Source: Sordariomycetes sp. S80-01Y (lineage: Eukaryota; Ascomycota; Sordariomycetes). From it: a stretch of 64,000 nucleotides of DNA. This document shows positions 1 to 25,500 of the stretch, piece after piece. The notes under the pieces are model-generated. The model did no database searches. It was not told the origin of the DNA and saw only the letters and a program-made list of their open reading frames with translations. The position numbers and the translations under genes were made by a program. Location of the stretch: NCBI GenBank assembly GCA_037042185.1, contig JAXQJY010000030.1, positions 558,001 through 622,000 of the forward strand, in the 5' to 3' direction. Position 1 is the stretch's first letter, and the number at the start of each line of letters is the position of its first letter.

Positions 1-500
1 AATGATGCTTCATGAAGCGCAACGCAAAACCAGCGAGCTGCAGCGCGCCCAGATCCGGGCCTCGCAACGAAAGCGCGCAGCCGCCGTCGCTTCTGGCAAG
101 CCTGAGCCCAGCGTGGACGTCGTTCGTCGTTCCATGTGCAAGTGTGATTACCCCGGCTGCACAAAGGCTTTCCGCCGAAACGAGCACCTGAAACGCCACA
201 AGCAGACGTAAGTACATGGCAGACACTGCACTCTCCGGCAATATCAACTAACACTATCATAGTTTCCACGGCGAAGGCCCCAACAGGTTCTGCTGCGAGT
301 TCTGCGGCAAGGATCAGTTCAACCGCCAGGATAACCTGAACAACCACCGCAAGCTCCACGCTCGGCCCAACAGCCGCAACAGGGGCGTGGAGTACATGCC
401 CGAGGCCGTTCCCGTCATCGAGCATGAGGAGCGCAGCCGCAAGAAGCGGGCACCTCCCAAATCCAAGTCTGTCAAGACAGAGGCGGATTACGGGCTGTGA
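1..500 (+). CDS. C2H2 zinc-finger transcription factor, C-terminal part (5' end outside window)
   Basis: This is the 3' end of a nuclear DNA-binding regulator. The reading frame enters the window open, splices at a GTAAGT donor at 208 to an acceptor ending at 262, and stops at 498-500 (exons <1..207 and 263..500). Two adjacent C2H2 fingers are visible. The first runs CxxxxxC...HLKRH and is split by the intron just after its last histidine. The second runs CEFCGKDQFNRQDNLNNHRKLH. A basic, lysine/proline-rich tail (RSRKKRAPPKSKSVK) that could be a nuclear localisation signal follows, and the protein ends about 45 residues after the second finger. Paired C-terminal fingers of this kind occur in developmental regulators such as BrlA-type proteins, but I cannot assign it to one. 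The DNA-binding role is secure; the target pathway is unknown. Confidence 0.85.
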
Positions 501-4815: not shown

Positions 4816-4904
4816 GATAGTAACGCGCTTGTATGTACATGTTAGATTGACTACGGAGGCGGCTATATACGGCCTGCCCATCGTCTAACCGAGGTCTACC
4901 CAGC

Positions 4905-5724
4905 TTAAGCAACAGTCGCAGAGTAGCTGGTGGTAGTGAATGTAACGTCGGTACCGACAAACGGCTCCGTTCCAGCTCCCACGCTCTGCACGACCTTGGT
5001 CGCATCCACCCCTTGCTCAGCGACGAGGTAGCTCGTGAAGTCCACCAGGTCACCGCTGAAGTTCTCAACGTTGCCGCTGCTGGCGACGAAGCTGTACACC
5101 TCCATCTGGCTGTGGCTGCCGTAGAACAGATCCCAGCTCTGCCCGTTGACGTCGACGGTGGCGATGGGCGAGCCGGTGCTCGAGATGGGCCCGGCGCCGC
5201 CGAAGGCGCCCAGCCAGATCATGAACTCGTAGGCCGGGGCGGAGTCGGCCGTGTCTCCGGTGAAGATGTCGAAGGCGACGTTGGTGGTGAAGTCGCCGGC
5301 GCCGGAGTAGCTGGTTCGCGTTAACACCTTGTCCCTTCTCTGGTTGCCCCAAGGCCTTGAAGACGTGAGGCGAGAAAAAAGGGAAAACTTGCCTCCAAGC
5401 CCACTCGGCCTGAATGCTGCTGACCTCGCTCAGAGGCTTCGGGTCCGCCTCGACGACCACGTTGGGGTAGCTCTTGACGCTGCTCGGGCCGCCAACCCAG
5501 GTCCAGTCGACAGACCAGCTCAGGGTGCCGTCGGCGGAGAGGCCATTGTTGGTGGTGCACTGCTCGCCCGAATCCGCCGAGTCCTGGCCCCAGAGGTTGT
5601 TGTAGACGGTGTAGGGGCCGGAGACCTCGGAGTCCCACTGGCCGCAGAAGGTGTCGCGCTTGGAGAGGAGGGGGGAGGCGGTGGTGAGGGTCGCGAGGGT
5701 GGTGGCGAAGACGACGGACTTCAT
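4905..5724 (-). CDS. GH12 endo-beta-1,4-glucanase / xyloglucanase, secreted
   Basis: Two exons on the minus strand (5724..5393 and 5310..4905) give 245 residues, the usual size for glycoside hydrolase family 12. Residues 1-17 form a signal peptide and LLSKR may be a propeptide site. Family landmarks are FCGQWDS near the N-terminus, YEFMIWLG with the nucleophile Glu139, and GTEPF with the acid/base Glu226. The enzyme should cut internal beta-1,4-glucan or xyloglucan bonds outside the cell. The intron joint is odd. The best joint, giving the conserved W-S-Y-S-G, uses a GC donor (GCAAGT at 5392-5387) and an acceptor just before 5310. Forcing a GT donor would break the motif. Whether it prefers cellulose, mixed-linkage glucan or xyloglucan cannot be read from the sequence. 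Confidence 0.92.
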
Positions 5725-5812
5725 AGCGGCGATTTTGAGATACGGTCTTTCGGGGTGGGTAGAGCTTCTCAGTCGGGACCGGACTTAGGCTGCTTCGCAT
5801 GAACGGGGAGAG

Positions 5813-5820
5813 CTTATAAG
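5813..5820 (-). promoter_or_regulatory. TATA-like element of the GH12 gene
   Basis: The palindromic CTTATAAG sits about 90 bp upstream of the GH12 start codon, a normal distance for a fungal TATA box. It is a prediction from position and sequence only. Confidence 0.45.
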
Positions 5821-8243
5821 TGACTTCTGGCTAGGGATCTACATTGCTCCTATATCACAAATGGCGAACCCGAAAAGGAGACGCTCCGTCTCGAGACCTA
5901 TGCGCTCCAATAGTCAAACAGCAGGACGCCTTGACATCCGTAAAACCCGTCGGCATCGCCATTTCCAACCAATGACACCCGCACCGTCCAGGCTATTCGC
6001 TCTCCCGCACCCCGGGGCCACCTCCGAGTCCGCGATCGATACCCGGAGCAGAATGTGGGGAACCCCGGAGGTTGGACCACCGATTGGCGGGAAAACCGGC
6101 CGGCAGTTGGGGCGCGCGTTTCACCGGGCGGGATCCGGGGAAGCTGGTCGCGAAAAAAACAAAACACACGCTGGTGCTGGTGATTTTCAGTTACTGCGGG
6201 CTCACGGGACGTGGTTTATAGTGTGCAAGCTGATCAAGTCGCATCCGTGGACGCTGTTTGTCATGTCGCAGGTAAGTAAGCCTCGACGTCATCGCCGGAC
6301 GGAGTCGCGTCTATGGCGAAATGTATGTAAATGTTGTTCAAGAGTCCACTGCTGTTACGCACTGAAAGTCGATTAAAGTCTAAAGCTGAATATGCCCTTC
6401 CTCATGGTTGAATGATGTAACAAAATTTTAATGACACGGTAAATGAAGCTCGAAACACGTTGTGTGTCCTTCGACCGCATCAGTTTCATTAACGCGGCTT
6501 GCTCATAGCGTTGCCGCGTGGCGTACGCCGCGTGTTTAGATCTGAGGCTCAGTCCTGGCTTCAATATTCTCATAAGATTGTCGATGTTCAAATCACCAAG
6601 CTCGAAACATTTCGCCCACCTGGACGTAGCTTTGCCCGATATTGCTGTCAGTTCCGGTTCACGTCTTAAAGGTGAGGGGACGGTTAGAGCGCGACCGCAG
6701 ATCGCGTCTCTTTCTGGAGTTCGTCGCAATCAGCTTGAACTGCCGATGGTTTCTGCGCTAAATTGCCCCAACCACCTCATGCGCTCACTCTCAGGCTAGT
6801 TCTACCTCCATCTTGGACCAGTTGATCGGCACGGGCTGAATTGAACGCATGGTCTCTGAGCTTCACCGGGCTTGGCACCGCCCAATCAGCAGCCCCGCGG
6901 AGTCCACGGACTTACAAGACACACACAGCTGCCATCGCCTGTCCAGCATGCCCCGAGGGCTTGGGTACCTGATCAGTGCGGCCGATAAGAAACACGCGGG
7001 CCGATTAGATGTCTGACCTCCGTGAGACGGGGGCGTGCGGTGTAGCCTCGCTGTCTTAGAACGGCAAGCCGTTTTGGCTGCTTGCTAGATCAGGAAATAG
7101 CTTTGAGACTGTTCCAAAATCTCGAGCTGGAGCTGCACTAAGTGCTTGGGAGCATTAAGTGAGGCGACAGCTGGCAAGACCGGGATGCCCGGCGGCTTGG
7201 TTAGGATCGGTAGTTGATGAGGATGACACTGCTTGGTGACCACGCCGCCGATCACAGCGCATCACCAAATGAACGTACTTGGATAATGCGAGTTTACTCC
7301 TCTTCATATTAAATGCTCTAGTTTAGTATTGTTTTTCAATTTCGGGCATCTTTATGCATTAGCTCGGGCGATGCAATTGCCTTGTAGACTGCGTGCGCGT
7401 GATATTCTCGTAAGTGTTGAAAAGCAACCTACACGGTTGAAGCAACGGTTGTTTTAGTGGTAACAACCCATAATGTATGTTGCAAGTAAACATCAACAAT
7501 AGCAGCACTGAACTTGTTCTTCAAAACTCGCGAAATTTAGAAGTGACATGAAGGGACTTATACGCTGAGGCGTAGTGCCACCCACAATCAACGTATTCTT
7601 GAACCCTTTCGCATAGGGTAGCTCATACGGACGTCCTATCTAGGAAGCGCCCATCACCTCCGTTCCTCAAGAAAGTTGCTGTTGTTTTAAACCTGCCATC
7701 AGAAGGCTTAGGTTGATTTTGATATTATATTATGAGAAGGTGCCTCGGGTACGTGTATTTCGAGTATGCCCCTACTCCCAGAAGAAAACAGCCACTAGAC
7801 TATGAATATTCAACACCACAAGCTTGAAGGCAGGCGCCTGGCGTATTAAGGTGATGCTCAAAGAGTGCCAATGCGCTTTCTCCATACTTAGAGATCTTCT
7901 GTTCGTGTAAAGTAGCTGCATATCCTGATCTTTCAAGCCAAGCAGCCCAGAGCTCTTGTTGAGGGCTGGAGGTCAGGATGATGCCCCATACGACAGCCGA
8001 CGACCCAAACCAGCCCCTGTTCCCTATCACCACCTGTGCTTCGTTCCCTTCTCTGGATATAGTACCTGCTCGAGGAGAATGAAAGGCGAGAGAGGTCATT
8101 CACCGAAGCTGAACATGACCCATAATCACATTCTTAAAATGGCGGTTTACTGACGGCGTGACCTATATAGAGGTCTTGGAAAGCTCTGAAGACAGTGCTG
8201 AATCTTTCAGTGATCTGTATTGTCTTTTCTCTTCTTTTGCTCT
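5821..8243. other. Intergenic, no gene supported
   Basis: This is one of the longer gene-free stretches. Open frames at 5861-6376 (+), 6373-6729 (-) and 7800-8099 (-) show no recognised domain, no splice partners and no typical start context. The middle part (about 6370-7750) is richer in A and T than its surroundings but shows no terminal repeats or transposon motifs. Confidence 0.5.
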
Positions 8244-8990
8244 CTAGGACAGTGGTGTAGGCTCGCTGCTGCCGGAAGAACTGATAGTCGTATACGCTAT
8301 CTCAACATCTGAAGAATCGCCTCGCAGTACGGTGCCCAGCTCTTTGGCTGCTTCGAGCAGCCCTTCGTCAGACAAAGGCTCCAGGGCGTCTAGAATAAAC
8401 AACACCCGGCTGGAGGAATCAGTGAGCGCCGTGCGCGGGCCCTGCCTCCAGTTCCAGCGCCGACAGGTGATGCCCGCCCCATCGCACCAAATCGGCTCTC
8501 CCGGCGCGGCATTCTCGACCACGCTCTCACCACCGGAGAAGGATTCAAAGCGCTCTTCACCCGTGGCCCGGATTAGGAAGGGCGAACCATCGTATCTGTC
8601 CAGATCCTCTCCGCCCACCGGCACCTGATGCTTGACCGAGATGGCGTTGTAAATATCCGTGAGCCTGTTGACGCGGGGAAGACCGCCCTGGGCACGGCGA
8701 GTCAGCGCCTCGATGCTGCTGCGGACCTTGCCGGGCTTGGCGCCAAATGCCTTGTACGTCTGGCGCCACGCTGAGATGTGCGGCAGCTCCGTCACAGGGG
8801 TGGCGGACAGCAGGTCGGTAGCCTTTTTCTCTGCTTCGACAAGGAGCGCCTCGCTGGCGGCGTCGCTGGCGGCCGGGGTGATGCCCTCGATCACCATCAG
8901 CAGGGCCCGGTAGTCAGGCCGGAGCTGAAAGATTTCGGGGGCGATGCGCGCCTCGCGAAGGATGTTGAGAGCGGTAGATTTGGGGGCCAT
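8244..8990 (-). CDS. B3/B4 (PheRS beta-like) tRNA-editing-domain protein
   Basis: This intronless gene encodes 248 residues; the ATG at 8990 is chosen because the conserved domain begins soon after it. The protein is a stand-alone B3/B4 domain (COG3382 type), the fold that edits mischarged tRNA in the beta subunit of phenylalanyl-tRNA synthetase. Visible family landmarks are WRQTYKAFGAKPGK, RVNRLTDIYNAISV, PVGGEDLDRYDG, EPIWCDGAGITCRRWNWRQG and TRVLFILDAL. By homology it may hydrolyse a wrong aminoacyl-tRNA or bind tRNA in trans; the cognate amino acid is unknown. Such free-standing proteins are common in bacteria and patchy in fungi, and the lack of introns is compatible with ancient transfer, which only a tree could show. 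It lies next to, but is probably not part of, the carrier/aldolase block. Confidence 0.85.
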   Translation of the reverse strand: MAPKSTALNILREARIAPEIFQLRPDYRALLMVIEGITPAASDAASEALLVEAEKKATDLLSATPVTELPHISAWRQTYKAFGAKPGKVRSSIEALTRRAQGGLPRVNRLTDIYNAISVKHQVPVGGEDLDRYDGSPFLIRATGEERFESFSGGESVVENAAPGEPIWCDGAGITCRRWNWRQGPRTALTDSSSRVLFILDALEPLSDEGLLEAAKELGTVLRGDSSDVEIAYTTISSSGSSEPTPLS

Positions 8991-9614
8991 GTTTGAAAGT
9001 TGCTTGGGTAAGTTCGGATGAGGAGGGATTGAAGCTCTTATACTCGACATTGAATGCAACAAAGGAAAAAAATCGAGAAACTTCGGGATGTGGCATAGAC
9101 GGCACATACCCATATCGGAGATCTAGCCATAATAGCCCCGGACTCGGGATCGGGGCGCGCCCTTCGGGTGGGCCTGATGTCAGAGTATCCAGTCTTGTTT
9201 AGCGGGAAGTTTCCAATTTTTAGGTAAGTTTGAGCACATCAAACTCTGATACTTACTCCCATCTCAGCAGCTTCTCAGAACAGGGGAAAGAAAAAAAAAA
9301 GCTTGTCGACCAATCAGGTAACAGGGTCGGGATACATTATTGAATCATCACAAATGGTCTGCTGCTCTGAAAGACATGTAAAGCGGGGACCGTTGCTAAC
9401 GCGATTCATTGGAGCTAACTAAGACTCATGAAGGTTCGGAGGCGCTCTGTGTGGAAAATACAGTCTGCGAGATTCAATCTCCCGGCCTCGGCGGTGCCTC
9501 GCATCGAGGAACCCAGTGCACCTGGCCCTGTCCGCAGAACGCCTCGAGTACGCTCCTCCTACAACGCCTTTCTAGCTTCCAGAAGATGAGGTAGCCAGTC
9601 CTGACAAGGAGAAC
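8991..9614. other. Intergenic
   Basis: Promoter side of the B3/B4 gene and 3' flank of the MFS gene. An A-rich run lies at about 9291-9300. No gene or structured RNA seen. Confidence 0.6.
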
Positions 9615-11333
9615 TCAGGTAGCATAGCGCCAGCTGTTGACAACACCAGTCTCCTCCTGCTCCTTGTCAAGCTTCTTGTTCTTGTGGATACTCAACCAAC
9701 GAGTGACAATGCATGCAATGATGCTGGCGCCGCAGCCGAAAATGATGATACCACCGCCAGTCTCGTAGCGAGGCTCCTGGTTGCGAAGGAAGAAGTAAGG
9801 AGAGAACCAGTGAGAGACTGACGAAACACAATTGGCGATGGCAATGAGAGCGGCACGCTTGGTGCGGGGACGAGGCACGACCGTTGTTTCCCAAGGAATT
9901 TGAATCTTTGAACCAAATCAGCTTACAGAAATCAAGCATTTAATGTAGGTAACTCACGTTCAGTGCGATGAATGGTCCAGTGCAGAGCAGGAACAGACTG
10001 AAGTAGCGAGCCGCTACGTTGAGGGTGCTGATCATGATGACCGTGCCAACGAGGGCTGCGAACATGGCACCGCAAATATGCCAGCAGTGCTCCAGCATGC
10101 GACCTGATGACCACGAAACTAGAAGAGTCACGGCATAGGCGAAGATGTATGGTGGCGCTTGAATGAGGTATGTGATGGTCTCGTTGAAGCCAAGAGTGTT
10201 GACAATCTGGAAGTCATTAGTAAGAGCCCCTGAAAGGATAATAATTCGGGCTTACCGAGGGGAAGAAATCTTTGAAAGACTGCGCAATGATGAAGAAGAA
10301 ATGCATGGCCGCGAAGCACCACGTGTAAGGCTCCTTGACAGCCATCCAGAACCCGCCCCAGTAACCGCCCTCGTCGTCTTCTGCGATACCGCCAGCATTG
10401 ACAAGCTGGCGATACTGAGCCATCTGCGTCTCCTCCTCAGTGAAGTAGCCGCCACCGGTGTTGTCTGGAAAGTTGGGAAGAGCCCAGAAACCGAGGAGAG
10501 CAACGAGAATACTGACGATGCCCTCAAGTAGCAGAAACCACTGCCACGCCGAGAGGTTGGCGATGCCGTCCATGTTCGTGAGAACGCCAGCGGCGAGGAG
10601 GCCAGAGAATGCATTGGAGATGATATTACCGGCGTGCCAGATGGCCATGCGGTAGGGCGTCTCCTTCTTGACATACCATGACGAAGACATCAGAGCCACA
10701 CCGGGTAGAAAGGGGCCTTCGGTCACGCCAACTAGGAAGCGGCACAGCATAAAGCCCCACGCAGACTTGACCGCGGGCATGCAGATGGTGACGAATGACC
10801 AGCCTAACATGACGCAGGGAAGGATTATGCGAGGTCGACCTTTGGCGATGATGATATTGGCGGGAATCTGGGTGATGATGTAGCCGACGTAGAAGAGCGA
10901 GATGCCGGCGGACCATTCGACGTCAGTCATGTGAAGGTCTGATTGCATGCCGGCGAGACGGGCGTTGGCTACATTGATGCGGTCAAGGTAGCTGAAAAGA
11001 TGTTAGAAAAGGATATTCGACCACCTGACCAAATCGAACCTACTTCATCAGAAGCATGAGAGTGATGACTACGAGGAACCGCCAGTCCAGCTTCTTCAAA
11101 ACGGCCTTGTTCAACGCATAGAGCTTCTCGGGAGAGGCCTCAGCCAGAAGGGAGTATCGCTGACGGAGGTTCCAAAGTTCCTCTTCCGTGAGGCCGCCAC
11201 CGATGTCAGCGTGGACCGGCATGAGCTCTCGCTCCTCGACCATGCCATCGTGCTTCTTGGTTGAGTCCAGGCTCTGACGGGGAGCATCCTTCTTGGACTC
11301 GGAGGAGGCACGCGGTGCCTGAGGGGCAGTCAT
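9615..11333 (-). CDS. MFS transporter, Dal5/allantoate permease-like (anion:cation symporter)
   Basis: Four exons on the minus strand, 11333..11044, 10991..10256, 10206..9958 and 9905..9615, give 521 residues. The joints restore NYLDRINVANARLAG after the first intron and ETTVVPRPRTKRAAL after the third, both typical of the fungal Dal5 family. The protein has a charged cytosolic N-terminus of about 85 residues followed by some 12 membrane segments, with the family-type GVTEGPFLPGVALMSSSWY loop. Members carry anionic carboxylates such as allantoate, nicotinate, tartrate and related acids into the cell with protons or cations. It is transcribed away from the Zn2Cys6 gene at 12358 across a 1 kb gap, and next come a 2-hydroxyacid dehydrogenase and an aldolase. 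That suggests an organic acid as substrate, but this is inference. Confidence 0.9.
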
Positions 11334-12357
11334 GGTAAGATCTGAAAGTATGATTGCCGGGTTTGAGGAGAACTCGGTTGTCTGTTGAGAGCGAGGGACC
11401 AGCTTTGAACCTCGAGGCCTGAGCTCTCCTTTATCCTAGAACTTCGACAAGCGTGGAGCCCCACAAACTACCCCGGACAAGAATGCCTGCGCATGGTCCT
11501 CGTCCGAATAAGTTTGGCTATGTCGGGAGATCAATTGGGGTTGGAGTCCTCACGGTCCTTGGCCCGATGAAAACTCGCCTGAACATAAGCGTCGAAAGAG
11601 AGGGTTGTCCGGGGTGTGGAGTCAGTCATAGTCTGGCCGGAGGTGGCCCGCAGGTCATCCGCGAGGGTTTCGGTGGTCGTCCGTTGCAGCCTTTGTCATT
11701 CTTGGCACCACAAGCCCGGCATTTATGGGGCGCAGCTGAAAAAAAGAGAGACCCAAAAGACAGGGTTAGACTTGGCAATGCTTTCTCCCCACGATGCTGG
11801 GGAGTTGCAGCGTGCGGGGAGACGCTGGGGACGGAGTGAGAGCGGGCGAACCCTGCGATTCGAAGGGTCAGGTCCGATGGGTGGGAGCTTGTGCAAAGTT
11901 CGCTTCAGCTGTGGTTAGCATGACGACTTTACGAGTCAAGAATGGGATGCTTTTAGTATGCAACGTGATCGTAACAGATGTGTGGGCTTTAGCGTCGGTT
12001 GTCTCGCTCATGGCTTCGAGGAACGCCTTCACCCAAGGCACACCAGGCAGAGAGACAAGTGTCGTAGAGACGCCATACAGGCTAGAAATGAGTTAGTGAA
12101 AGAGATTGAGAAATGGGAGGCCTGAGATTGGTTTTCTCGTTGCGTGTCAAGTGGACAGCTGATGTTTTCGTTGCGTTGTCCTGTGGCTTCAAGTTTCAAG
12201 GTTGCTGACCCGCCCACAGTCGTGACTTCCACTTCCCATCATCAACGTCGACCTCAAACTCAACAGGACACGTGAGCGCGCCAAATCTTTTCAACGTTCC
12301 AGCACTGCGTCCAAAAGCCACTAAAATGCTTCCCATGGTTCCCACTGATTGTGCATC
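11334..12357. promoter_or_regulatory. Divergent promoter region between MFS carrier and Zn2Cys6 gene
   Basis: About 1 kb separates the two start codons. A CGG-N7-CCG inverted repeat lies at 11671-11683, a spacing used by some Zn2Cys6 dimers. I saw no CGG-N4-CCG site here. Open frames in the stretch have no domains. Confidence 0.4.
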
Positions 12358-14602
12358 ATGACACCCGACCCCGACCCCGACGCCGAACGAGGGAGGCTGC
12401 TGCCCGCCTGTCAACGCTGCCGCACGCGCAAGATCAAATGCGACCGCGGAGCCCCCAAATGCGCACGATGCGCCAGAGCCAAGGCCACCTGCTTGGTGGT
12501 CGATCCAGTTACTTCGGAGACCTACTCGAGGGATTTTATCAGCCGACTCGAGGGGAAAGAAAGGGAGTTGCGCGCCGCAATCGAAGCTTCAGCGACTCCA
12601 AATCTCACTGAGGGCGAAATCAACGGGAGCCATATTGAGAGCCTCACATCACCCGCTTCCATCTCCAGGGTCAATGCCTTCGTTGGAGACGGCAGTGGTC
12701 TCGGCCTCATGCGTGCCATTTTCTCAGACCAGAGATGGCAAGCCTACGAGCCGCAGCTGCTCGAGCAACTGGCTGAAAGGCCCCAAATCCCCGAGATGGA
12801 GGTGGTGCAAAACCAGCAGCCGTCCGTTGCCGAAGCTTCAAGCCTCTTGGATAACTAGTGATAACCCCCTTCAGCTTTTATGATTCTTCTTTGAAGCTAA
12901 TCTATAGATAGTTTTGGACGATTCCATATCAACCATACGTTTCTTTTGCGCCGCGACATCATGGGCACATTCAACCGCGTCTATCAGCCAGGCGGATTCT
13001 CGCCTACTGCGCAGGACTACTTTCGACTCTTCATGGTATTCGCGGTCAGTAGCGTGACCCGTTACCGGGCTTCGGAGAGCGGCGAACATCCGTATGGATA
13101 CTATTTAGCGGCACAAAACCATCTTTCTCGTACACCTCTTGTTGGGAGTCTGGACGCGATCCAGAACCTTCTTTTAGTGGCTCGATTCGGGATGTATCAT
13201 CACATCGGTAAGGAGAAGTTCCCAGGAGGAGTTAAGGTGGCTAATCTGCGTCACAGGCATGTCCCTTTGGGATATTTCTCGCTTTTGCATGCGCCAGTGC
13301 ATTGAGCAAGGCCTGCACCTCCCAAACCACGGTGGCGATGACTTTCTTCAACAGCAGCACAAAAGGAGGATCTTCTGGGAATGCTACATATTGGACCGCT
13401 ACAGCTCCGGCGTTCTCGGTCGACCTTTCGCTATTGCCGACGAAGATATAAGGACCGGGCTGCCTATCAGTGCGTCGGACGAGATGATCGAGTCCGAGCA
13501 TCAGGCAAGCTCTATTGACGACATTATGGTCACCGGTCCTTCCACGGAGATGGCGGTCTTCATCTTCGTCATCGAACTTCGGCGCATCACTTCTAGAATA
13601 CACACAGACTTTTACGACATACGAGACTTGGGGTCATCGGCCAGCGGCAGCAACACACCGCATCAGAGGCTCTCCTCCGGCGACGTGTATGTCAAGTTAC
13701 ATCGGATGATGGATGAATTGGATGACTGGCGTCGACGAGCGCCGATTTTCGCCGAACAAACATCGCTTTACGAGAAGCCTGAGTGGTATGACTTTATGCT
13801 AGCCAAAGACAAGTTGCTGCTGGTCAGGGCTGCAATGCATCTCGCTCCTCGCCGCAATGGCCATCCTCCCGTAGATCTTTTGCAGCTGTCTCTGAGACAC
13901 GCAGTCGAGATCGTCCTTCTGTACGACAGCATGCTCCAAAGCAAGAGTATTACCTGGACGCGCAGCTACTTCCAGGTCATATTCACCGCAGGTCTATCAA
14001 TCATTCACTGTGTGTCTCTTGGGGTCCTCCGCGACGTCGAGAGCTCGACGAATGCTGGCTCGAATACTGGTATCCCACCTAGTTCGGCACTAGAGACGTG
14101 CAGTCGGATACTGCAAATATTCAAAAAGGAAATGCCTGATGCGGGGCGCTTTGCCATCGTCTTTGAAATGCTCAAAAGTAACGTCAACAGAGACTTGAGC
14201 ATGGGGCCAATATCTACTTACGGCCATCGGGAGACTATCAACTCCCATCTTGAGGAGGAGACTATCGGCGCCATGGATCGTCTACAAGAGCACTCTGCGG
14301 TTGAGAAAGGCATGAGTGGCATAGACCTGCTCGCAGATGTTGCTAACTGGCCGGGTGGAATGGATGCATTGGCAGCAATGAACCAACAAGCCCCCAACCA
14401 GATGATCCTGCAGCATACATACCTCGGAGGCATGCCAGAAATGAACCAAGCATCACTGAACAGTGACTCCTCAATGCTGGATTGGCCGGCTTTGACCGAT
14501 GAGATGATGGTCCAGCTAGAGACTGACTTGGGCGAATACGCTTGGGACACAATCGGCCATGCTTCCAATCCTTGGGATGCCATGGGGTGGGGCTCTTCAT
14601 GA
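12358..14602 (+). CDS. Zn2Cys6 transcription factor with fungal-specific regulatory domain
   Basis: Three exons, 12358..12857, 12912..13207 and 13257..14602, give 713 residues. The binuclear zinc cluster has six cysteines at residues 18, 21, 28, 35, 38 and 45. A linker of about 120 residues is followed by the middle homology domain, with YFGRFHINHTFLLRR restored across intron 1, GMSLWDISRFCMRQCIEQGLHL across intron 2 and RRIFWECYILDRYSSGVLGRPF. The C-terminus is acidic and methionine-rich, as in activation regions. By family it is a nuclear regulator binding CGG-containing sites as a dimer. It is convergent with the dehydrogenase (85 bp between the stops) and divergent from the MFS carrier, which makes it a plausible local regulator. 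Confidence 0.9.
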
Positions 14603-14687
14603 GAGCTGCGCTACGGTCATTGGAGAAATCGCGTATCTTCAATTCGACGTCAATGCTAAGAGTGAATTGTAGCGCGACTACGCCTTA

Positions 14688-15659
14688 CTACAGCTGCGTG
14701 GCGAATTCATGGAGCCTTTGGACCGCTGCGATCGCCGTTTCCTTCTGCGTCTGCGCAGTAGCAGCCCCAACATGGGGCGTGCTCACTACTCTCTGCGACC
14801 AAAGCGCTTCATACCTCGCCTTGCTCGGTGGCTCCTCCTCATGGCAGTCTAACCCTGCGCCCCATATCAAGCCTTCTGCTAAGGCTCTGCACAGATCCTC
14901 CTCATTTACGATCCCTCCGCGAGCTGCGTTGATAACGATAGCCGTAGGCTTCATCAGAGACAGCTCCCGGTAGGACAACATGTTCCTAGTCTCGGGCGTC
15001 AACGGAACGTGGACACTCAGAACATCAGACGCCTCCAAAACCTCATCAACGGTCGTGACCCGGCGGTGAGGGATGTCTGACCATGCGTCCAAAGGCATGA
15101 AAGGATCGTATGCAATCACTTCTGCTTGGAAAGCGCCGCGGAAAATACGAGCCACTGCTTGCCCAATATTCCCCATCCCGAGAAGACCAATAGTTTTCTT
15201 GTTCATGATGAGCCCAGAGCAGCTTTCCTTGGGCACGAGGTTCCCCTGCATCTGCCTTGTGTGGATTTGCGGTATCTCGCGAGCTAAGCTCATTGTCAAG
15301 GCGAGCACGATCTCTGCCACCGCTTGTGCGTTGACCCCCGGGGTGTTGAAGATTTTGATGTCCCTGTCGGCGCACGCTTTGGCGTCAATCTTATCGATCC
15401 CAACACCCTGCTTTCCGATAGCCCTCAGCCTAGGACATGCCGCCACGTCCTCGGCTGTGAGGTAGGAGGACCGTATGAGTAGATATTCTGCATTCTGGCG
15501 CCAGCTCGAGTGTCCCTTATCTCCAGGAAGGATCGTCCGAAATCGCTCTTGACAATATGTGATTGCATCGGGATGAAACTTGTCGAGGACGTATACAGTT
15601 GGAAGAGCGTCGGCAACGGGGCTAGTCTCGCGACTGTCCTCGAGTCTGGAAGGCGCCAT
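14688..15659 (-). CDS. D-isomer-specific 2-hydroxyacid dehydrogenase
   Basis: A single exon encodes 323 residues with the full family layout. The N-terminal substrate-binding lobe is followed by the Rossmann motif GMGNIG at residues 161-166 and the catalytic triad Arg247 (NAARGG), Glu276 (HEEEP) and His296 (TPHVG). The enzyme should reduce a 2-keto acid to a D-2-hydroxy acid, or run in reverse, with NAD(P)H. An aspartate near residue 185 (AYDP) after the Rossmann fold favours NAD(H). Substrates in this family include hydroxypyruvate, glyoxylate, phosphoglycerate and larger keto acids; the sequence does not say which. It lies 0.7 kb downstream of an HpcH/HpaI aldolase on the same strand, so its substrate may be a keto acid linked to that aldolase. 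No targeting signal is apparent, so it is probably cytosolic. Confidence 0.93.
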   Translation of the reverse strand: MAPSRLEDSRETSPVADALPTVYVLDKFHPDAITYCQERFRTILPGDKGHSSWRQNAEYLLIRSSYLTAEDVAACPRLRAIGKQGVGIDKIDAKACADRDIKIFNTPGVNAQAVAEIVLALTMSLAREIPQIHTRQMQGNLVPKESCSGLIMNKKTIGLLGMGNIGQAVARIFRGAFQAEVIAYDPFMPLDAWSDIPHRRVTTVDEVLEASDVLSVHVPLTPETRNMLSYRELSLMKPTAIVINAARGGIVNEEDLCRALAEGLIWGAGLDCHEEEPPSKARYEALWSQRVVSTPHVGAATAQTQKETAIAAVQRLHEFATQL

Positions 15660-16352
15660 GATGGAACAACGAACAATCTGTTGAGGATTATGTGTATGTT
15701 CAAGATGTGGGCATTTCCTTCAGAAGTACAAGACTGTGTTTACATATCGAACTTTAGCCATTATCCGACTACTCCACCTAACTCGGCTGATGTCTCACGA
15801 CCGTGTTATCTTTCGGCGGACTGCCGACGTCCTGTGACCGAGAAGCATTCGCCTAAACTTTCAGGGGATAGGAAACGGATCGAAAAAGGCTAGGATTTGA
15901 GAAGCCCATGGAAGTGGTATCCGGTTTGACCTTGGACGGAAACGACGGGGAGGGTCCGATGACCCACGTGGGTAAGCTCAGATCACATCTCCTCCTCACC
16001 ATGAAAATGGAAGTCAATAACTAATGAAGCGCTGATCTTCTCCAAGACCCACTGGTATATCAAGAAACACAATATGGCTAACCGACTCCGGTTCCAATCA
16101 TCTCCGTGATGCACGAGGTACGTCAGGGGCAGAGTCCGATGCTCGGGAAGTAGATTCTACCAAGACCTTCGGACATCCTCCGCGGAGCATTGCACAAAGA
16201 ACCGCCTGCAGACTTAGGAAAGTCTTACTGTGATCTCGCCAGGCCATTGGGCAATGCTCCGAGGTCGTGTCAAATATAGCTGAGCGGAACAAGACATGAC
16301 GAGCAACAGTCAGCTGCCAATGGTATTTTATTTACAAATCTTTAAATCATGC
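15660..16352. other. Intergenic between dehydrogenase and aldolase genes
   Basis: Holds the dehydrogenase promoter and the 3' flank of the aldolase gene. A CGG-N4-CCG inverted repeat is listed separately. No gene seen. Confidence 0.6.
15817..15826. promoter_or_regulatory. CGG-N4-CCG inverted repeat, candidate Zn2Cys6 operator
   Basis: The half-sites CGG and CCG flank ACTG about 160 bp upstream of the dehydrogenase start codon. An additional CGG lies directly before it at 15814. The same spacing recurs in the aldolase promoter at 17432-17441. Zn2Cys6 dimers typically read such inverted CGG triplets. Confidence 0.4.
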
Positions 16353-17174
16353 TTAACTACTGCCGTTTACGGTCGACGAAACACGCTTGTTTAGCTCAGC
16401 CATCTCTGCTCCCCTCTTAGAGGCACTTCCCACCAAGAGAGGTCCGTCGGTTGCTGCCATGACCCAACGGGCCCCCATTCCGCAGAACTTCTCTACGAGA
16501 TCAAGGCGTGAATGAAGACCACCCACGCCAACCCACTTGCCCACCTTGTTGCAAGCGTTGATTGTTCTTTGGTACGCCTCGGTGACCTTGGGGTTCTCGT
16601 AGTCTCCTGGGATTCCTAGCTCTGCGCACAGGTCGTTGGTGCCTATGAGGAGGGAGTCAACTCCGTCAACGGCAGCAATTTCATCCACAAGCTCTAGCGC
16701 CTCCACAGTCTCGATCATAGGGATTACCAGAGTTCCTTCGTTGCAGACGGGGTTGGCCACCTTGGCGGGGTGAGATCGGAATTGAAAGTGCGGCAGACCG
16801 TTCGTCGATGAGCGGCAACCGATGGGTTGGAACTTGGAAGCAGCAACGACGTCGCGTGCGTCCTGGACGCTGCGGATATGGGGCACGATGACCCCCAACG
16901 CTCCGCCGTCCAGGATGCGGGAGACGAAGAAAGGGTCCTTGCTGGGAGCCCGCACGATGGGGGCAATGCCCGCGTACAAAGCCGACATGCAGATCTGGCC
17001 GGTCGTGTCGAGGTCGAAGGAGGAGTGTTCCATGTCGATGAGAATGCCGTCGAAGCCGGCTGTTTTGGCAATCATGGAGATCTCGACGGAGCGCACGAGC
17101 TTGACGCTGAGGGTGTAGGCCACTTCATCGCGGACGAGCTTCTCCTTGATGGAGTTGTGAAGGGTGAGAGCCAT
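16353..17174 (-). CDS. HpcH/HpaI-family class II aldolase
   Basis: A single exon encodes 273 residues, matching the HpcH/HpaI aldolase/citrate lyase family. Positions matching known active-site residues are visible: IDMEHSSFD with His50, PIVRAP with Arg75, PMIETVEAL with metal-binding Glu155 and IGTNDLCAELG with metal-binding Asp181. The barrel signature of a divalent-metal, pyruvate-forming aldolase is therefore complete. Members split 2-keto-3-deoxy or 4-hydroxy-2-keto acids into pyruvate and an aldehyde. The well-known fungal galacturonate route uses a different aldolase family (DapA-like), so an HpcH-type enzyme next to a Dal5-type carrier and a 2-hydroxyacid dehydrogenase points to another acid route. 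It is divergent from a Zn2Cys6 gene over a 480 bp shared promoter that holds CGG/CCG inverted repeats. The exact substrate is unknown. Confidence 0.92.
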   Translation of the reverse strand: MALTLHNSIKEKLVRDEVAYTLSVKLVRSVEISMIAKTAGFDGILIDMEHSSFDLDTTGQICMSALYAGIAPIVRAPSKDPFFVSRILDGGALGVIVPHIRSVQDARDVVAASKFQPIGCRSSTNGLPHFQFRSHPAKVANPVCNEGTLVIPMIETVEALELVDEIAAVDGVDSLLIGTNDLCAELGIPGDYENPKVTEAYQRTINACNKVGKWVGVGGLHSRLDLVEKFCGMGARWVMAATDGPLLVGSASKRGAEMAELNKRVSSTVNGSS

Positions 17175-17431
17175 TGTGTAGGATCAAAGGCAATCACACT
17201 TTTGCGATACAGTTGAGAGCGAAGGACGGATAGATGTTGCGCGCAAGTGAGAGCTGTTTCCGCCACAAAAGAGGCAGCCCTCTTAATTAAGTCCCATCAT
17301 CCAATTCCGAACAACAGCTTCTGTGCCGAGTATCGGATTTGCAACCTCCTCAATCCAGCCTCCGAGGGCTCCAAAGGTTCTCACGAGCCCACAAAAGTAT
17401 CGCGAATTCACAAGGAGGGTGTTAGCCGCGG

Positions 17432-17481
17432 CGGAGGTCCGACGAGAGACGCCGCGCGAGTCATGCCAGGGGCGGCATCCG
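17432..17481. promoter_or_regulatory. Pair of CGG/CCG inverted repeats in divergent promoter
   Basis: CGG-N4-CCG lies at 17432-17441 and CGG-N3-CCG at 17473-17481. Both sit near the middle of the 17175-17655 promoter shared by the aldolase and the second Zn2Cys6 gene. The N4 form matches the site upstream of the dehydrogenase. They are candidate binding sites for one of the two local Zn2Cys6 factors, on sequence grounds alone. Confidence 0.45.
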
Positions 17482-17655
17482 AAGCGGGGTGTGTCTTGGT
17501 ACCCCAAGATTCCCCACGCGTGATCGACAGTCCATCCTCCTCGCATCGACGGGCCCAGTCCGAAGACCTGCCAATGCTGTCTGGGAGGTGTATATGCACC
17601 CGGATAGTGTGTAAAGACAACACAGGGTTGTTGGTACCCGAGCCTCGCCGCCAAT

Positions 17656-19698
17656 ATGCCCAGCCGAAAGCGAAGTATGGATGACTTGATGCCTCAGGCC
17701 TGTGAGCGCTGCTGGATGAGGAAACAGAAGGCAAGTGAGGACGGTTTGGCGGGCGGCAACACCAGGTTCTGAGCTTCATGGGAAATTTCCAAGCAATTGA
17801 GAGTGCTGACTCTGGTATTTAGTGTGATCGTGTCAAGCCTAGCTGCCAACAGTGCCGGTCAGCGTCGGCAGAATGCATTGAAAGACTGCACGGCACTGTG
17901 TTGAACCCAGATGATCCCGAGGCGCATCATAGGTACGAGAATGCAAAATGTCTTCTGAATCCGACTATTCTTCATTTTCTGACCCGGCTGCAGCTATATA
18001 GAAGCTCTGAAACGCAGGGTCGCAAACTTGGAAGCTCGAGTGAAGTCCTCTCCAGCAGGCGATACATCAAGAACCAGCCATGTGGGAACGGCCCCAACTT
18101 ACACACCAGCGTCAACTGCACAGTCCCAGCCTGGTCTGCCTCAGAGGGACAATCTTCAAGCCGAAATGGGATATCTCTCGCTAAGTGCCATGGCTGAGCT
18201 CTCGGGGGACCTGCCATCCCAGAGTCCCGCCGTGTCTTTCCCGTCCTTGGTTCAAGCTACCACCTGCGTGTCAGGCGCGAGCCCTCTTGAATCAATAGGA
18301 GAGAATGAAGGCATAACTGGATCTTTGGGCGAGGTTCATCGAGCCATGTTGAAGCAGGGAAATACATTCAATATTGCCGTCAAGTCAAAGCCGTTCGACA
18401 ACTTCATCATGCTCAATGAGGCCAGCCTTGGCTTCATGGACACGAGCCAGCTCTCGGCCGAGAATGACGCGGCGGCTCAATTACACGAGATAGGGTCGGT
18501 CGATAGCCATGCCACGCAGTCTTTGTGCAAAATGATGAGGGTTTATATCGGCGTGGCAACTGGGCTCTTGCTGGGAAACGATTATCGGTACACGGAAACT
18601 TACTCAACAGCTCTCGCACTTCAAGCTTTCCAAGTCATGCCGCGGGCCTTCGCCTGTGCCAGTGACATTGATGCCGTCCAGTCTTTGACGGCCATGACCA
18701 TCTTCTCTACGCTCAGTCCCTTCGGCGGCTCGCCTTGGCAGATGTTAGGCTTGGCTATCACAAGGTGTATATCCGGCGGGATGCACACCGCGAGGATGTC
18801 GGACCCGGTCTCGGACGACGCCGACAAAAGGAGAAACAGTTTGGCATTTTGGTCGCTCTATACCCTCGATGCGTAAGTTACCACCATGTCACATGGGCGC
18901 AGATTGGCTGACAGTCTCAGCATCTTCAGCGTGGTCCTTGGCAGGCCGTTCTGCTTGAGGAAACAAGATATCAGCGTCTTGTCCCCATCGAGAACATGCA
19001 CACTGGGCGACCTCGTCGGCGAATTTCGCGCGTGGAACGTCCAGCACGCCATGCTTCTTCATGACATACGCGACCACCCGGCCAAAGGTATGCTCTTTCA
19101 CTGGAGCAACTATAAGCATTGGCGAGAAACAGCGCCCCTGGTCCCGGGAGACAATAACTCCAGCGCTAGGTGGTTCAAGGAACACCAGTATCCGCGATCC
19201 TGCTGTCGCGGACTGCTGGCGATGCTTCAAATCCCCGCGAATTCACAGAACGCGAGCGAGCTATCGATGATCTTAGAGCCAGCAGTATCCATAATCTCGT
19301 CCTACTTTGCCGCCCTAGATAGGCAGTCCAAGTCCCAGAAAGGAGCCTTCTCGAGCTTAGACGGGGTGGAAATCTTGTCGGCAGCAGTTGGGCTCATCTA
19401 TGTTACGCAGCTCCGCGTTTCTTCACAGCCAGTCCCGTCAGACGCGTCGTGGCATTTCTTTGCGTCGGTGCAGAGGCCGCTTCAGCTGCTGACGCAGATA
19501 TCGGACCGTTTCAAGGCGCTCCGTGGGCTCAGCGACGTGCTCCAGAGCTTTGTGTTGACAATGTGCAACGGGTCCACGTCCAGTTCCCCTTCCTCGAATC
19601 TGAGTTCCATTTTGACCTCAGCTGAAGTCGAGATTCCGCAGTATATCTCATCTCTCATGCTCCAGTGTCTGGAGGCCCGCTGCCAACGAGGACCCTGA
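17656..19698 (+). CDS. Zn2Cys6 transcription factor divergent from the aldolase
   Basis: Four exons, 17656..17730, 17823..17932, 17994..18872 and 18921..19698, give 613 residues. The zinc cluster has six cysteines at residues 16, 19, 26, 33, 36 and 43. It is assembled across the first intron, whose donor reads GCAAGT, so this is a GC-AG intron placed just before the third cysteine. The joint of exons 2 and 3 restores SYIEALKRRVANLEARV, the usual linker and coiled-coil dimer element. The fungal-specific middle domain follows, with FWSLYTLDA-IFSVVLGRPF rebuilt across intron 3. A second in-frame ATG at 17677 is an alternative start. Head-to-head position with the aldolase makes it a likely direct regulator of that gene and perhaps of itself. 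Confidence 0.87.
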
Positions 19699-21258: not shown

Positions 21259-22548
21259 ATTGAAGGGCCCTAACGATTTGTGACGGGAGGTTGCAAACAA
21301 GTGAGCTTTCACGGCTATGGTCTGATACCCCAGCAGTGGCTATTTTGTATTCCATTCAATTTTAGCCTTCATTCCAACGGTCGTATTCGCATGACAGTGT
21401 GTGTTACAGGTCAAGCTTTGATGTAACATGGAAGACGAACATTCTTCATCAACATTTACCATATATCTGAGCATGTCTCCTCACAGCTTGTGATGAATGG
21501 AAAGTCTTCTCGTGCTCTCTGCTCGATGTCTGTAGCAAGCCTACCCCAGGATTGAAATTGATGGCCCAGGTACTAGTGATACAGTACTGGTGAGATCCTT
21601 CCGTGTCGAGACAGTAGAGGTAAACCTCGTGGGTGAGGTTGACAAACAGCGCTGCATGGACGAGAACCCAGATAAGGGTCGCGTTGATGTTGAATAGGGT
21701 CCCAAACACTGACATACAATTACCTCTGGTTTGCATGTGATCTAAGCTCTTCACATTGGTTTCACGTCCAGAAAATTCCGGGACCTGCAAGCGTCCAATG
21801 CTGTTTTGGAGCAGGGATATACGAGCTGGCACCCAGTGGCTCGAGCTTTTTACCATCAGGCTTGCAACAGGTGTTCAAATGTCGTTACAAAGGGGAGACA
21901 TCACCACAACCTCATTGCGTAGCCAGGGTAGCATGTGTGACATCTTCACACGTGTAGTAGAGAGCCTTGATACTGTGGCTCGCCTGAAAGAGCACCGCTT
22001 AGTGACCCCTTTGTGAGTCAAGCATGCGAATTGAATCCCAACTCTGACCGCTTCTTTGCGAACATCACTTCTCAGGAAGTTGAGACGACAGCCGTATATC
22101 AAGTTGACATCCGGGTGCACTGCAGCAAGGTCATCTGGTCTGACCAATGGCAGGCTTCAAGCCGATGACAGCGCATCGCGGCCGGCCTCCCGCAGATGCA
22201 AGGCGCCCAACCACAGCTACTACACAGCTGATGAGGGGACAGATGCATCAATTGTATGCGTATCTGCACCCTTCAGAACACAGCCCGGCTCTGGTTTTCG
22301 AGCTTGTTTCGCATGTGATGTGCTGTGCCTCGTTTAACGACAAACACCCTGACCCCTTTTCTTCTTTCCGTCACCTCGACCATCATGAAAGACCTGGCAT
22401 CATCTTACGATCTCAAAAAAGCACAACAGTATTTTAATTTGATCATTTTATCAGGTCATTATCCTTGGTTTAGGTCGATCAGCTGAACGGCTTTGCACCG
22501 GTCTGTACAAGCGCACTGACTTAGCCTCTGCAACTTCTCCTCCACACG
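21259..22548. other. Intergenic, no gene supported
   Basis: A minus-strand frame at 21449-21856 contains one hydrophobic stretch, but I could not build a convincing gene around it. The right part is the RdRP promoter. Confidence 0.5.
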
Positions 22549-25500
22549 ATGGAAGTATTTCTCCATAATGTGCCCCAAGATCTGTCTGATCAGAGCTTGC
22601 GGAAAGAGCTGGAGCCTTTCATGCGCGCTCTGAAGATCATCGACTGGCAATGTGACAAGCCACGGCGAAAGACCCAGGCTTGGGTTGCCTTCCTCAACGC
22701 CGAGGAGGGTGTTAAATTCTTACAGAAGCACGGGACCATAACCAGAACGACTCCTCGCCAATTTTCTGCTTCTGTCCTTGCTGTATCATCCACAGCCAGT
22801 ACCATGCCACATACGAGGCTGCGGGACAGAGACGTTGGTCAGTCGGGCGTGCAAGATTCAGTGCCCAAGCCACGGAACATTGATCGGCTTCGCATTGCCA
22901 ACAAGCCGGTTTCCGCTAAGAAGAGCACTCGCACGCTTAAAGACCACATGTTGGGCCATCTTAAGCACGAGCAACAGGAGCGGCTTCGTGTACCTCGGAG
23001 GAACCCAATGGCGCCAACTATCGAGGTTGCTGCAACAGCTGTCTTCTGCGGCGGCAACACGTTCAGTCAAGAGGACGAACAGCTGGTCTTCACCAGGCAG
23101 ACCTCACATCGTACACATATGACTATAAGTCTGACTGAGCGATCGATGAGCATTGTTGCAGAGAACAAGTTCCGCATGGACGTCAGGTCGGAATCGATCG
23201 TGGATTTCATCGCTCACAGCGCAAGCTGGACCCTTGTCCTCAGCGAGCCGCCCCGCTTCTTTGGTTTCATTAATCAAGGTATTGATAACTACACCAAGTG
23301 GGAGCGGCGCGGATCCTGCCCTTTGTGGGCAAACCATGAGAAATACGCCGGGGGGTGTCTCGTCTACCAATTCTGGATTCAGCATAAGGACATGGGTAAA
23401 CTGATGCAAACAATCAAAGATCGAGACCTCATCTCTGTTACGCAGGATCAACTACGGGTCGACCGAAGTCCCAAGCCAAACGTTGATGACTACTCGACTA
23501 GCATGGACGCTTTCGAGGCCAAGATTCACGCCAACCAGAAGATTGGCTTCCAACTGCCTTTCCCCACACTTTTCCAGATCCAAGCCTTAGTATGGAACAA
23601 CTACATCCAGCCGTCGAAGGCGATGATGATGATCGATCTGATGAGATTGGTAGCGAAAGAGCTGAAGAACAAGGGGGATCCTTTCCCCTTTACGGTTGAT
23701 GCGATGAAGAAGCTCTTTCAGGAAATCCCCTATCCGTTACCAGAAACTGTTCCTGTCAGCCTCGATCTGCGCACATTGGTGGAGAGAGTCATAAATGTAG
23801 ACCGAACCCTTCGTCGAGAGGATCCTACTCGCGACAAGCTGTACGGCGCGCCTCTTCCCGGTCACCAGGCGTGGGTGATGAAGGCCAACGTGACGCCCAC
23901 CCGGATCACGCTTAGCGGTCCGGAAGCTGAGAGCAAAAACCGCATCTTGCGAATGTTTCCAGGACACACTGACTACTTCCTGCGCGTGCTCTTCTGCGAC
24001 GATGACGGACAAGACCTGCCCCTCAACCCAAAGATATCGAATGAGAGGGTGTACGAACGATATAGACAGGTCTTAAGGGACGGGATCAAGGTCGCGGGCA
24101 GGCAATTCTCTTTTCTGGGCTTCTCGCACTCCTCCCTCCGATCACATTCAGCGTGGTTCATGGCGCCCTTCACCGATCACAACTACGAAAAGCAGAACTA
24201 CGACACCATCATACGATCACTAGGTGACTTTGCGCACATCAGGATCCCGGCAAAGTGCGCGGCGAGGATCGGCCAGGCTTTCAGCGAAACAGCGTACGCG
24301 GTTCCAATCTTCGCCAGGGACGTCCGCCACCGCTACATCCCCGACGTGAAGAGTGCTGACAGCGAACGCGTGTTCAGTGACGGCTGCGGCACGCTGTCCC
24401 TCGAAGCCATGAAGGAATTTTGGAGCCATCTGCCGGAGAGGTACAAGGCTGCCACATGCTTCCAGATCCGATGGGGCGGGACGAAGGGCATGCTGTCTCT
24501 TGACACCAGACTCAGAGGCAAAGAATTCTGCGTCCGCAAAGGATCGATGCTCAAGTTTCAGAGCGATGACTTGAAGGAGATTGGCATCTGCGACGGGGCA
24601 TCGCAGCCTCTGCGATTGATGCTGAACCGACAAATGATCAAGATTCTAGAGGACATGGGAACCACTGATGGGTGGTTCTTCAAGCTGCAGAATCGGGAGC
24701 TGGATATCTTGCGTGCAGTGACGGATCAGGCCATCAACACGAGCACTTTTATGCGACACCAGCTGATCGGCGCAAGCATGGGGTTTCCGCAATTCATCAA
24801 GCAGGTTTACCGCATGGGGATTGACTATCGTCGGGATACCTTCCTCAAGACCGTGGTCGAGCATGTTGTGTTGAGGGAGGTACGGCTGCTCAAGCACAAA
24901 GCCCGGATTCCTGTCTACAAAGGCGTAACACTGTTCGGCATCATGGACGAAACCGGTTTCATCGGCGAAGATGAGATATACATTACCTTTGACAAGTCTA
25001 ACAGGCAAATTAACCAGCCACCGCAGGAAGGGCCTGCAATCATCACCCGATCACCCGCCCTCCACCCGGGAGACATCAGGGTCGTCAAAATGGTGTCGCC
25101 ACCAGCGGATAGCCCGCTACGGCATTTGACAAACTGTGTGGTGTTCAGCCAGAAAGGGGACCGCGACCTCCCAAGTCAGCTCAGTGGAGGTGATCTAGAT
25201 GGCGACCTATATAACATCATTTGGGATACCGAGGCCTTGCCCTCAAGGATGTTCCAGCCAGCAGACTATCCCAGAGTTTCACCTCGGCCTCTAAGCAGAG
25301 AAGTAACTCGAGAGGATATTGCCGACTTCTTCATCAACTTCATGAAGACGGACGTCCTCGGGATGATCGCCACTCGGCACGTCATCCTGTCCGACGAACG
25401 AAAGGCTGGTACGTGCGATCCGGATTGCATTCGCCTGGCAAGCTTGCACTCAACAGCCGTCGATTCGTCCAAGACTGGCATCCCTGTGAACATCCGCGAC

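What the first reader, a model, noticed from the sequence alone, without database searches (positions are those of the whole stretch)
9615..19698. Possible undescribed organic-acid uptake and breakdown cluster
In about 10 kb a Dal5-type anion carrier, a Zn2Cys6 factor, a D-2-hydroxyacid dehydrogenase, an HpcH/HpaI aldolase and a second Zn2Cys6 factor are arranged divergently and convergently with no unrelated gene between. The known fungal galacturonate route uses a DapA-type aldolase, so an HpcH-type aldolase with a 2-hydroxyacid dehydrogenase suggests a different acid route (sugar diacid, hydroxy acid or aromatic-derived keto acid). All catalytic residues that I can identify are present.
Basis: partly seen in the sequence, partly recalled or inferred. 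Interest (0 to 1): 0.75.

Follow-up and report, generated by a model that had tools for sequence, protein, structure and literature searches.

The report
Fungal hydroxy-acid breakdown gene cluster
Five neighbouring genes in a fungus (a carrier, two control genes and two enzymes) look like a kit for taking up and splitting an organic acid that is still unknown, and similar kits lie at other places in the same genome, which makes the grouping unlikely to be chance.

Summary
All five genes are intact at the stated coordinates and no other gene was recognised between them. The grouping is not chance. Locus C7 of the same genome carries all five families; C11 carries aldolase, dehydrogenase, MFS carrier and a Zn2Cys6 factor, in other orders. 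3 of 9 HpcH loci have a D-2-hydroxyacid dehydrogenase within 3 kb, 0.05 expected; without the window 2 of 8, 0.04 expected. The three dehydrogenases form one clade. Among 80 bacterial loci of aldolase relatives, 26 also hold such a dehydrogenase, about 2 expected; the 24 long enough for the tree fall outside the fungal clade, so the pairing probably arose more than once. Most likely a 2-hydroxy acid is imported, oxidised to a 4-hydroxy-2-oxo acid and cleaved to pyruvate plus an aldehyde; no enolase-superfamily dehydratase lies nearby. The substrate is not identified and the order of the two steps is inferred. New variant of a known kind.

The parts
9615..11333 (-). MFS carrier of the Dal5 / anion:cation symporter kind, 4 exons (11333-11044, 10991-10256, 10206-9958, 9905-9615), 521 aa
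11334..12357 (.). divergent promoter region of carrier and factor 1 (1024 bases); holds 2 GTCCGA hexamers (weak)
12358..14602 (+). Zn2Cys6 transcription factor 1, 3 exons (12358-12857, 12912-13207, 13257-14602), 713 aa; mutual best match in the genome with the factor at C7 near 316-318 kb
   Evidence: (Zn_clus 1.3e-8, Fungal_trans 2.8e-18)
14688..15659 (-). D-2-hydroxyacid dehydrogenase, intronless, 323 aa, NAD-type motif
   Evidence: (2-Hacid_dh_C 1.8e-50)
15660..16352 (.). region upstream of the dehydrogenase (693 bases); holds 3 GTCCGA hexamers (weak)
16353..17174 (-). HpcH/HpaI class II aldolase, intronless, 273 aa
   Evidence: (HpcH_HpaI 3.4e-28)
17175..17655 (.). divergent promoter region of aldolase and factor 2 (481 bases); holds 2 GTCCGA hexamers (weak)
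17656..19698 (+). Zn2Cys6 transcription factor 2, 4 exons (17656-17730, 17823-17932, 17994-18872, 18921-19698), 613 aa; first intron has GC-AG borders; best match in the genome is the factor beside the C7 aldolase
   Evidence: (Zn_clus 4.4e-6, Fungal_trans 8e-11); in the reverse search it is third of three near-tied factors

Best explanation
The five genes are one inducible catabolic cluster for an organic acid. Shown here: the genes are intact, the set recurs elsewhere in the genome, and the enzymes keep the fold and the residues taken as catalytic. Inferred: (1) the Dal5-type carrier brings in the anion with protons; (2) the NAD-dependent D-2-hydroxyacid dehydrogenase oxidises the (R)-2-hydroxy group to a 2-oxo group; (3) the divalent-metal HpcH/HpaI aldolase cleaves the resulting 4-hydroxy-2-oxo acid into pyruvate and an aldehyde; (4) one or both Zn2Cys6 factors sense the acid or the 2-oxo intermediate and switch the genes on. 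The chemistry therefore fits 2,4-dihydroxy acids (3-deoxy sugar acids, 2,4-dihydroxybutanoate-like or pantoate-like acids; examples from general chemistry, none tested). The dehydrogenase takes the place that a dehydratase has in the known fungal galacturonate and rhamnose routes. The paralogous clusters would be versions for other acids.
Against: No expression or enzyme data. Substrate unknown, so the order of the two steps is an inference. The distance cut-offs of the counts were chosen after seeing the loci. The carrier's nearest paralogues (53-63% identical in their main segments, C3 and C11:0.20 Mb) sit elsewhere, and the C7 carrier is only 35% identical. The window aldolase does not group with the C7/C11 aldolases in the best tree, although a common clade is not rejected (p 0.27). 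Factor 2 and its C7 counterpart are not mutual best matches. One of three close aldolase paralogues (C15, L039) has a Zn2Cys6 motif nearby but no D-2-HDH match in the fetched 10 kb. The two partner dehydrogenase fragments left out of the tree as too short (L063, L084) are 42-43% identical to the window's over 92-100 residues, so they do not speak for separate origins. The shared promoter hexamer GTCCGA is the top of 2080 hexamers but not significant after correction (0.12) and hardly enriched in the paralogous clusters (3 seen, 1.0 expected).
Confidence: 0.5

Rival explanations
1. Same cluster, opposite order: a dehydratase coded elsewhere makes a 2-keto-3-deoxy acid, the aldolase cleaves it to pyruvate plus an oxidised fragment (glyoxylate, hydroxypyruvate or tartronate semialdehyde), and the dehydrogenase then reduces the 2-oxo fragment, for example to glycolate or D-glycerate, or pyruvate to D-lactate.
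For: After phosphoglycerate dehydrogenase, the dehydrogenase's best NCBIfam matches include glyoxylate and hydroxypyruvate reductases, and the aldolase matches GarL of the glucarate/galactarate route, all below cut-off. Solved relatives include glyoxylate/hydroxypyruvate reductases and a class II pyruvate aldolase bound to hydroxypyruvate. Six MR_MLE rows above cut-off lie elsewhere in the genome.
Against: No MR_MLE dehydratase is linked to any of the three clusters (no other dehydratase family was searched), whereas both enzymes stay linked. The fungal enzyme that shares the family, GluC, works in both directions, so family alone does not give the direction (PMC4870679, passages).
Confidence: 0.27
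2. A small biosynthetic or tailoring cluster: the aldolase condenses pyruvate (or acts like macrophomate synthase) and the dehydrogenase makes a D-2-hydroxy acid, with the carrier as exporter.
Against: I saw no NRPS, PKS or terpene synthase by eye among the listed frames of the window (Pfam was run on 18 distinct genes or frames of it, plus six intergenic ones). The carrier is of an uptake-type anion family. Several bacterial pairs sit beside uptake receptors (judged by eye).
Confidence: 0.12
3. The window cluster is a known L-rhamnose-type route: the aldolase is the LraD/LRA4 L-2-keto-3-deoxyrhamnonate aldolase.
For: LraD is HpcH family PF03328 in A. nidulans, and fungal LRA genes can be clustered or lie beside a regulator gene (PMC7532622, passages).
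Against: No MR_MLE (rhamnonate dehydratase-type) gene near, no rhamnose dehydrogenase or lactonase recognised in the cluster, and a D-2-hydroxyacid dehydrogenase has no step in the four-reaction route described. The genome holds nine HpcH loci, so LraD may be another. The LraD sequence was not at hand to compare.
Confidence: 0.05
4. Five unrelated neighbours by chance.
For: The genome is rich in MFS and Zn2Cys6 genes: 61 rows match factor 1 and 89 the carrier, self and separate exons included.
Against: Recurrence at C7 and C11 and the co-location counts.
Confidence: 0.03

Closest known systems
Fungal L-rhamnose route (LRA; LraD/LRA4 aldolase)
   Same: HpcH/HpaI-family aldolase giving pyruvate plus an aldehyde, a dedicated activator (RhaR), non-phosphorylated
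   Different: Uses sugar dehydrogenase, lactonase and dehydratase; here no MR_MLE dehydratase is linked and a D-2-hydroxyacid dehydrogenase is
Fungal D-glucuronate route, GluC (2-keto-L-gulonate reductase)
   Different: No aldolase step named in the passages seen; GluC sequence not compared
Fungal D-galacturonate route (GaaA-D)
   Same: Sugar acid to pyruvate plus a small aldehyde by an aldolase (abstract listing, passages)
Bacterial glucarate/galactarate route (GarL) and 4-hydroxyphenylacetate route (HpaI)
   Same: Aldolase superfamily, fold and catalytic residues
   Different: Scores far below the equivalog cut-offs; the partner reductase GarR is of another family (recalled)
Bacterial HpcH aldolase plus D-2-HDH operon pairs (for example L089, L090, L117, L133)
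   Same: Same two enzyme families side by side, sometimes overlapping
   Different: Their dehydrogenases fall in another clade and these four aldolases are only about 28-34% identical to the window's; function of those pairs unknown to me

Membership tests
HpcH/HpaI class II pyruvate aldolase | Domain over the curated cut-off and fold | tested here: met
HpcH/HpaI class II pyruvate aldolase | Catalytic His and Arg, metal-binding Glu and Asp | tested here: met
   H50, R75, E155, D181 invariant in 12 rows; roles recalled; D42 and R70 of HpaI and H44 of SwHKA appear as mutated residues in the titles
HpaI, GarL or RhmA equivalog | Score over NCBIfam equivalog cut-off | tested here: not met
   125.8 of 368.8, 113.5 of 406.75, 90.1 of 441 bits; these cut-offs are set for prokaryotic proteins
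D-2-hydroxyacid dehydrogenase | Both domains, Rossmann GxGxxG, Arg-Glu-His | tested here: met
   PF00389 and PF02826; G161, G163, G166, R247, E276, H296 invariant in 5 rows of this genome
D-2-hydroxyacid dehydrogenase | Named substrate class (PGDH, GhrB, D-lactate and others) | tested here: not met
   all 21 NCBIfam models listed are below their cut-offs
Dal5 / anion:cation symporter family | MFS fold and family-level similarity | tested here: inconclusive
   MFS_1 2.8e-29; TIGR00893 1.5e-47 but below cut-off; no characterised Dal5 protein at hand to compare
Fungal L-rhamnose (LRA) cluster | Linked rhamnonate dehydratase of the MR_MLE type | tested here: not met
   8 MR_MLE rows, 6 over the cut-off, none near the window cluster, C7 or C11; LRA genes are not clustered in every fungus
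Fungal L-rhamnose (LRA) cluster | Aldolase orthologous to LraD | not tested
   LraD sequence not on hand
Fungal metabolic gene cluster | Co-expression | not testable with these tools
   no expression data
Fungal metabolic gene cluster | Conserved linkage across species | not testable with these tools
   no fungal collection; linkage between paralogous loci in one genome tested instead and met

The most novel reading that the evidence does not exclude
A dehydratase-free fungal route for 2,4-dihydroxy (3-deoxy) acids, in which a D-2-hydroxyacid dehydrogenase feeds an HpcH aldolase. It would exist as several substrate-specific paralogous clusters in one genome, be paralleled by separately assembled bacterial operons, and in the window's copy use an aldolase acquired from proteobacteria.
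Probability: 0.25. Interest if true: 0.7.

Novelty: new variant of a known kind. Interest (0 to 1): 0.5.

Why it matters
If true, fungi have a second general way to feed acids into a pyruvate aldolase, by oxidising carbon 2 of a 3-deoxy acid instead of dehydrating an aldonate. It would give a function to three clusters at once and bear on a recurrent bacterial gene pair whose function is unknown to me. Each step can be assayed with two soluble enzymes, and the carrier and factors give a ready growth and induction test. Even without the substrate, the recurrence turns five separate annotations into one testable unit.

Tried and rejected
Chance grouping: rejected on recurrence and co-location. 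Cluster copied as one intact block: not supported; dehydrogenases are one clade, but aldolases and carriers do not follow the same pattern and gene order differs. Horizontal transfer of the window aldolase: 50-58% identical over most of its length to the first ten loci listed, all proteobacterial, against 37-40% to its three close paralogues, and placed with bacteria in the best tree (83/92, not starred), but one clade with the paralogues is not rejected (p 0.27) and no other fungi could be added, so it is not claimed. Shared regulator site: GTCCGA is top of 2080 hexamers, not significant after correction, hardly repeated in the paralogous clusters. Substrate from bacterial neighbours: the nearest aldolases looked at have mixed surroundings by eye, no consistent pathway. 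L-fucose route of Trichoderma reesei: the passages propose the galacturonate dehydratase and aldolase (PMC12370193). Sulfonate idea from Soa1 of the Dal5 family (PMC5303821, passages): nothing specific to this carrier found. Other passages seen without use for the verdict: PMC13158570, PMC4855365. A search on metasaccharinic acid listed nothing with that word among the six shown; one on macrophomate synthase gave a listing only. Literature searches for this combination; no title or abstract start in the listings shown, and no passage opened, described a D-2-HDH plus HpcH plus carrier plus factor cluster. The library is open-access only.
Full report
What is there. The window lies at 558001-622000 of contig C13 of a 30.87 Mb genome in 16 contigs. 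Order and strand: carrier (-), factor 1 (+), dehydrogenase (-), aldolase (-), factor 2 (+). The first intron of factor 2 has GC-AG borders, and using it gives a regular six-cysteine cluster. Pfam confirms all five above cut-off. Six longer frames in or overlapping the gaps have no Pfam match. NCBIfam names no function above cut-off for the two enzymes or the carrier.

Is it more than chance. I searched the whole genome for the HpcH family (11 rows, merged to 9 loci) and the D-2-hydroxyacid dehydrogenase family (25 rows, merged to 22). Three of nine HpcH loci have such a dehydrogenase within 3 kb: the window, C11 near 1.351 Mb and C7 near 0.320 Mb. Expected 0.048, Poisson P 1.8e-5. Leaving out the window, because it was the reason for looking, 2 of 8 remain, P 8e-4. 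Dal5-like carriers also lie near HpcH genes: 4 of 9 within 5 kb, expected 0.25, P 1.3e-4; 5 of 9 within 5.5 kb, a cut-off widened to take in the window; without the window and without one carrier added by hand, 3 of 8, P 0.002. Dehydrogenases and carriers are linked too: 7 of 22 within 5 kb, expected 0.61, and 5 of 21 after the same exclusions, P 3e-4. The cut-offs were chosen after seeing the loci, and the null places genes uniformly, so the P values are rough.

The repeated sets. Locus L038 (C7) holds a factor like factor 1, a dehydrogenase, an aldolase, a factor like factor 2 and an MFS carrier: all five families in another order and orientation. Locus L037 (C11) holds a Zn2Cys6 factor, aldolase, dehydrogenase and MFS carrier. 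Factor 1 and its C7 counterpart are each other's best match in the genome by a wide margin. Factor 2 finds its C7 counterpart first by a wide margin (84 against 37.5 bits for the next gene), but in the reverse search three factors are near-tied (45, 43 and 41 bits), the window's being third. The C7 carrier is only 35% identical to the window carrier; closer ones (53-63% in their main segments) lie at C11:0.20 Mb and C3:0.62 Mb. So the set is kept together while its members turn over, which I take as a sign of selection on the linkage.

Bacterial parallels. Of those 80 loci, 26 hold a D-2-HDH, 28 frames in all, 21 of them within 1 kb of the aldolase, measured between stop-to-stop frames, which makes gaps look a little smaller. 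From 206 first-look candidates in 73.0 Mb of 11 of those genomes, about 2.2 would be expected in the 785 kb of flanks. The loci are not independent, since many are relatives. In L089 and L090 the two frames overlap. The 24 partner dehydrogenases in the tree lie outside the fungal clade, so the pairing seems to have formed more than once; the two fragments left out (L063, L084) are 42-43% identical to the window's over 92-100 residues, more than most of the others, and stay open. In the window aldolase's own group, 3 of 11 bacterial loci carry a D-2-HDH (L063, L064 about 5 kb off, L072), about the same share as in the whole set.

Mechanism. In the known fungal galacturonate and rhamnose routes an aldonate is dehydrated to a 2-keto-3-deoxy acid before the aldolase (passages). 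Here no MR_MLE dehydratase lies near any of the three clusters; other dehydratase families were not searched. What is linked instead is an enzyme that makes or removes a 2-oxo group. The simplest reading is oxidation of an (R)-2-hydroxy acid carrying a 4-hydroxyl, then cleavage to pyruvate and an aldehyde. The reverse order, with the dehydrogenase reducing glyoxylate, hydroxypyruvate or pyruvate, stays open and is the main rival.

Comparison with what is known. GluC of A. niger is a D-2-HDH in sugar-acid catabolism and works in both directions (PMC4870679, passages). In the A. niger galactarate study a D-2-HDH is induced and its deletion does not block consumption; no HpcH aldolase is among the seven chosen genes (PMC5153877, parts 1-3 of 4). 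The Dal5 family is described as carrying various organic anions and vitamins (PMC5303821, passages). I found no description of the present combination in the searches listed under Tried and rejected, within an open-access library.

Regulation. The hexamer GTCCGA occurs 2, 3 and 2 times in the three upstream regions, 7 in all against 0.94 expected, the most enriched of 2080 hexamers; after correction this is 0.12, and the paralogous clusters show 3 against 1.0 expected. This is not evidence for a shared site.

Verdict. I file it as a new variant of a known kind (a fungal catabolic gene cluster), interest 0.5.

Noticed in passing
L036 (C15:2710000-2719990), 188-5454: Another acid-type neighbourhood: a zinc alcohol/polyol dehydrogenase, a Dal5-like carrier and an HpcH aldolase side by side, with no D-2-HDH match in the fetched 10 kb.
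   Followed up: partly
L035 (C16:1935000-1944990), 4576-9991: HpcH aldolase beside a Dal5-like carrier and a protein that looks by eye like a C2H2 zinc-finger regulator.
   Followed up: partly
L016 (C15 near 1.536 Mb) and L013 (C16 near 2.015 Mb): The two closest D-2-HDH relatives outside the clusters also have Dal5-like carriers within 1.4 and 3.3 kb, and L016 also a neighbouring frame that looks by eye like a Zn2Cys6 factor; they may be further acid clusters without an aldolase.
   Followed up: partly
C2 near 435-439 kb of the genome: An enolase-superfamily (MR_MLE) gene lies about 1.4 kb from a Dal5-like carrier, a possible sugar-acid dehydratase cluster.
   Followed up: no
window 41543-43186: One reading frame joins a weak EthD-like N-terminal part to an alpha/beta hydrolase, next to a short Zn2Cys6 protein at 43607-44785.
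   Followed up: no
window 59024-61140: A long Thr/Pro/Glu-rich repetitive frame (59191-61140) with no Pfam match, preceded in an overlapping frame by what looks by eye like a signal peptide; perhaps a mucin-like cell-wall protein.
   Followed up: no
window 22525-25536: RNA-dependent RNA polymerase of the cellular fungal kind (PF05183, 2.4e-182, with a fungal RdRP PH-like domain).
   Followed up: no
L089, L090, L092, L107, L116, L117, L133 (bacterial loci): A recurrent HpcH aldolase plus D-2-HDH pair in bacteria, sometimes with overlapping frames, beside frames that look by eye like tripartite tricarboxylate receptors, RraA-like or short-chain dehydrogenase genes; function unknown to me.
   Followed up: partly
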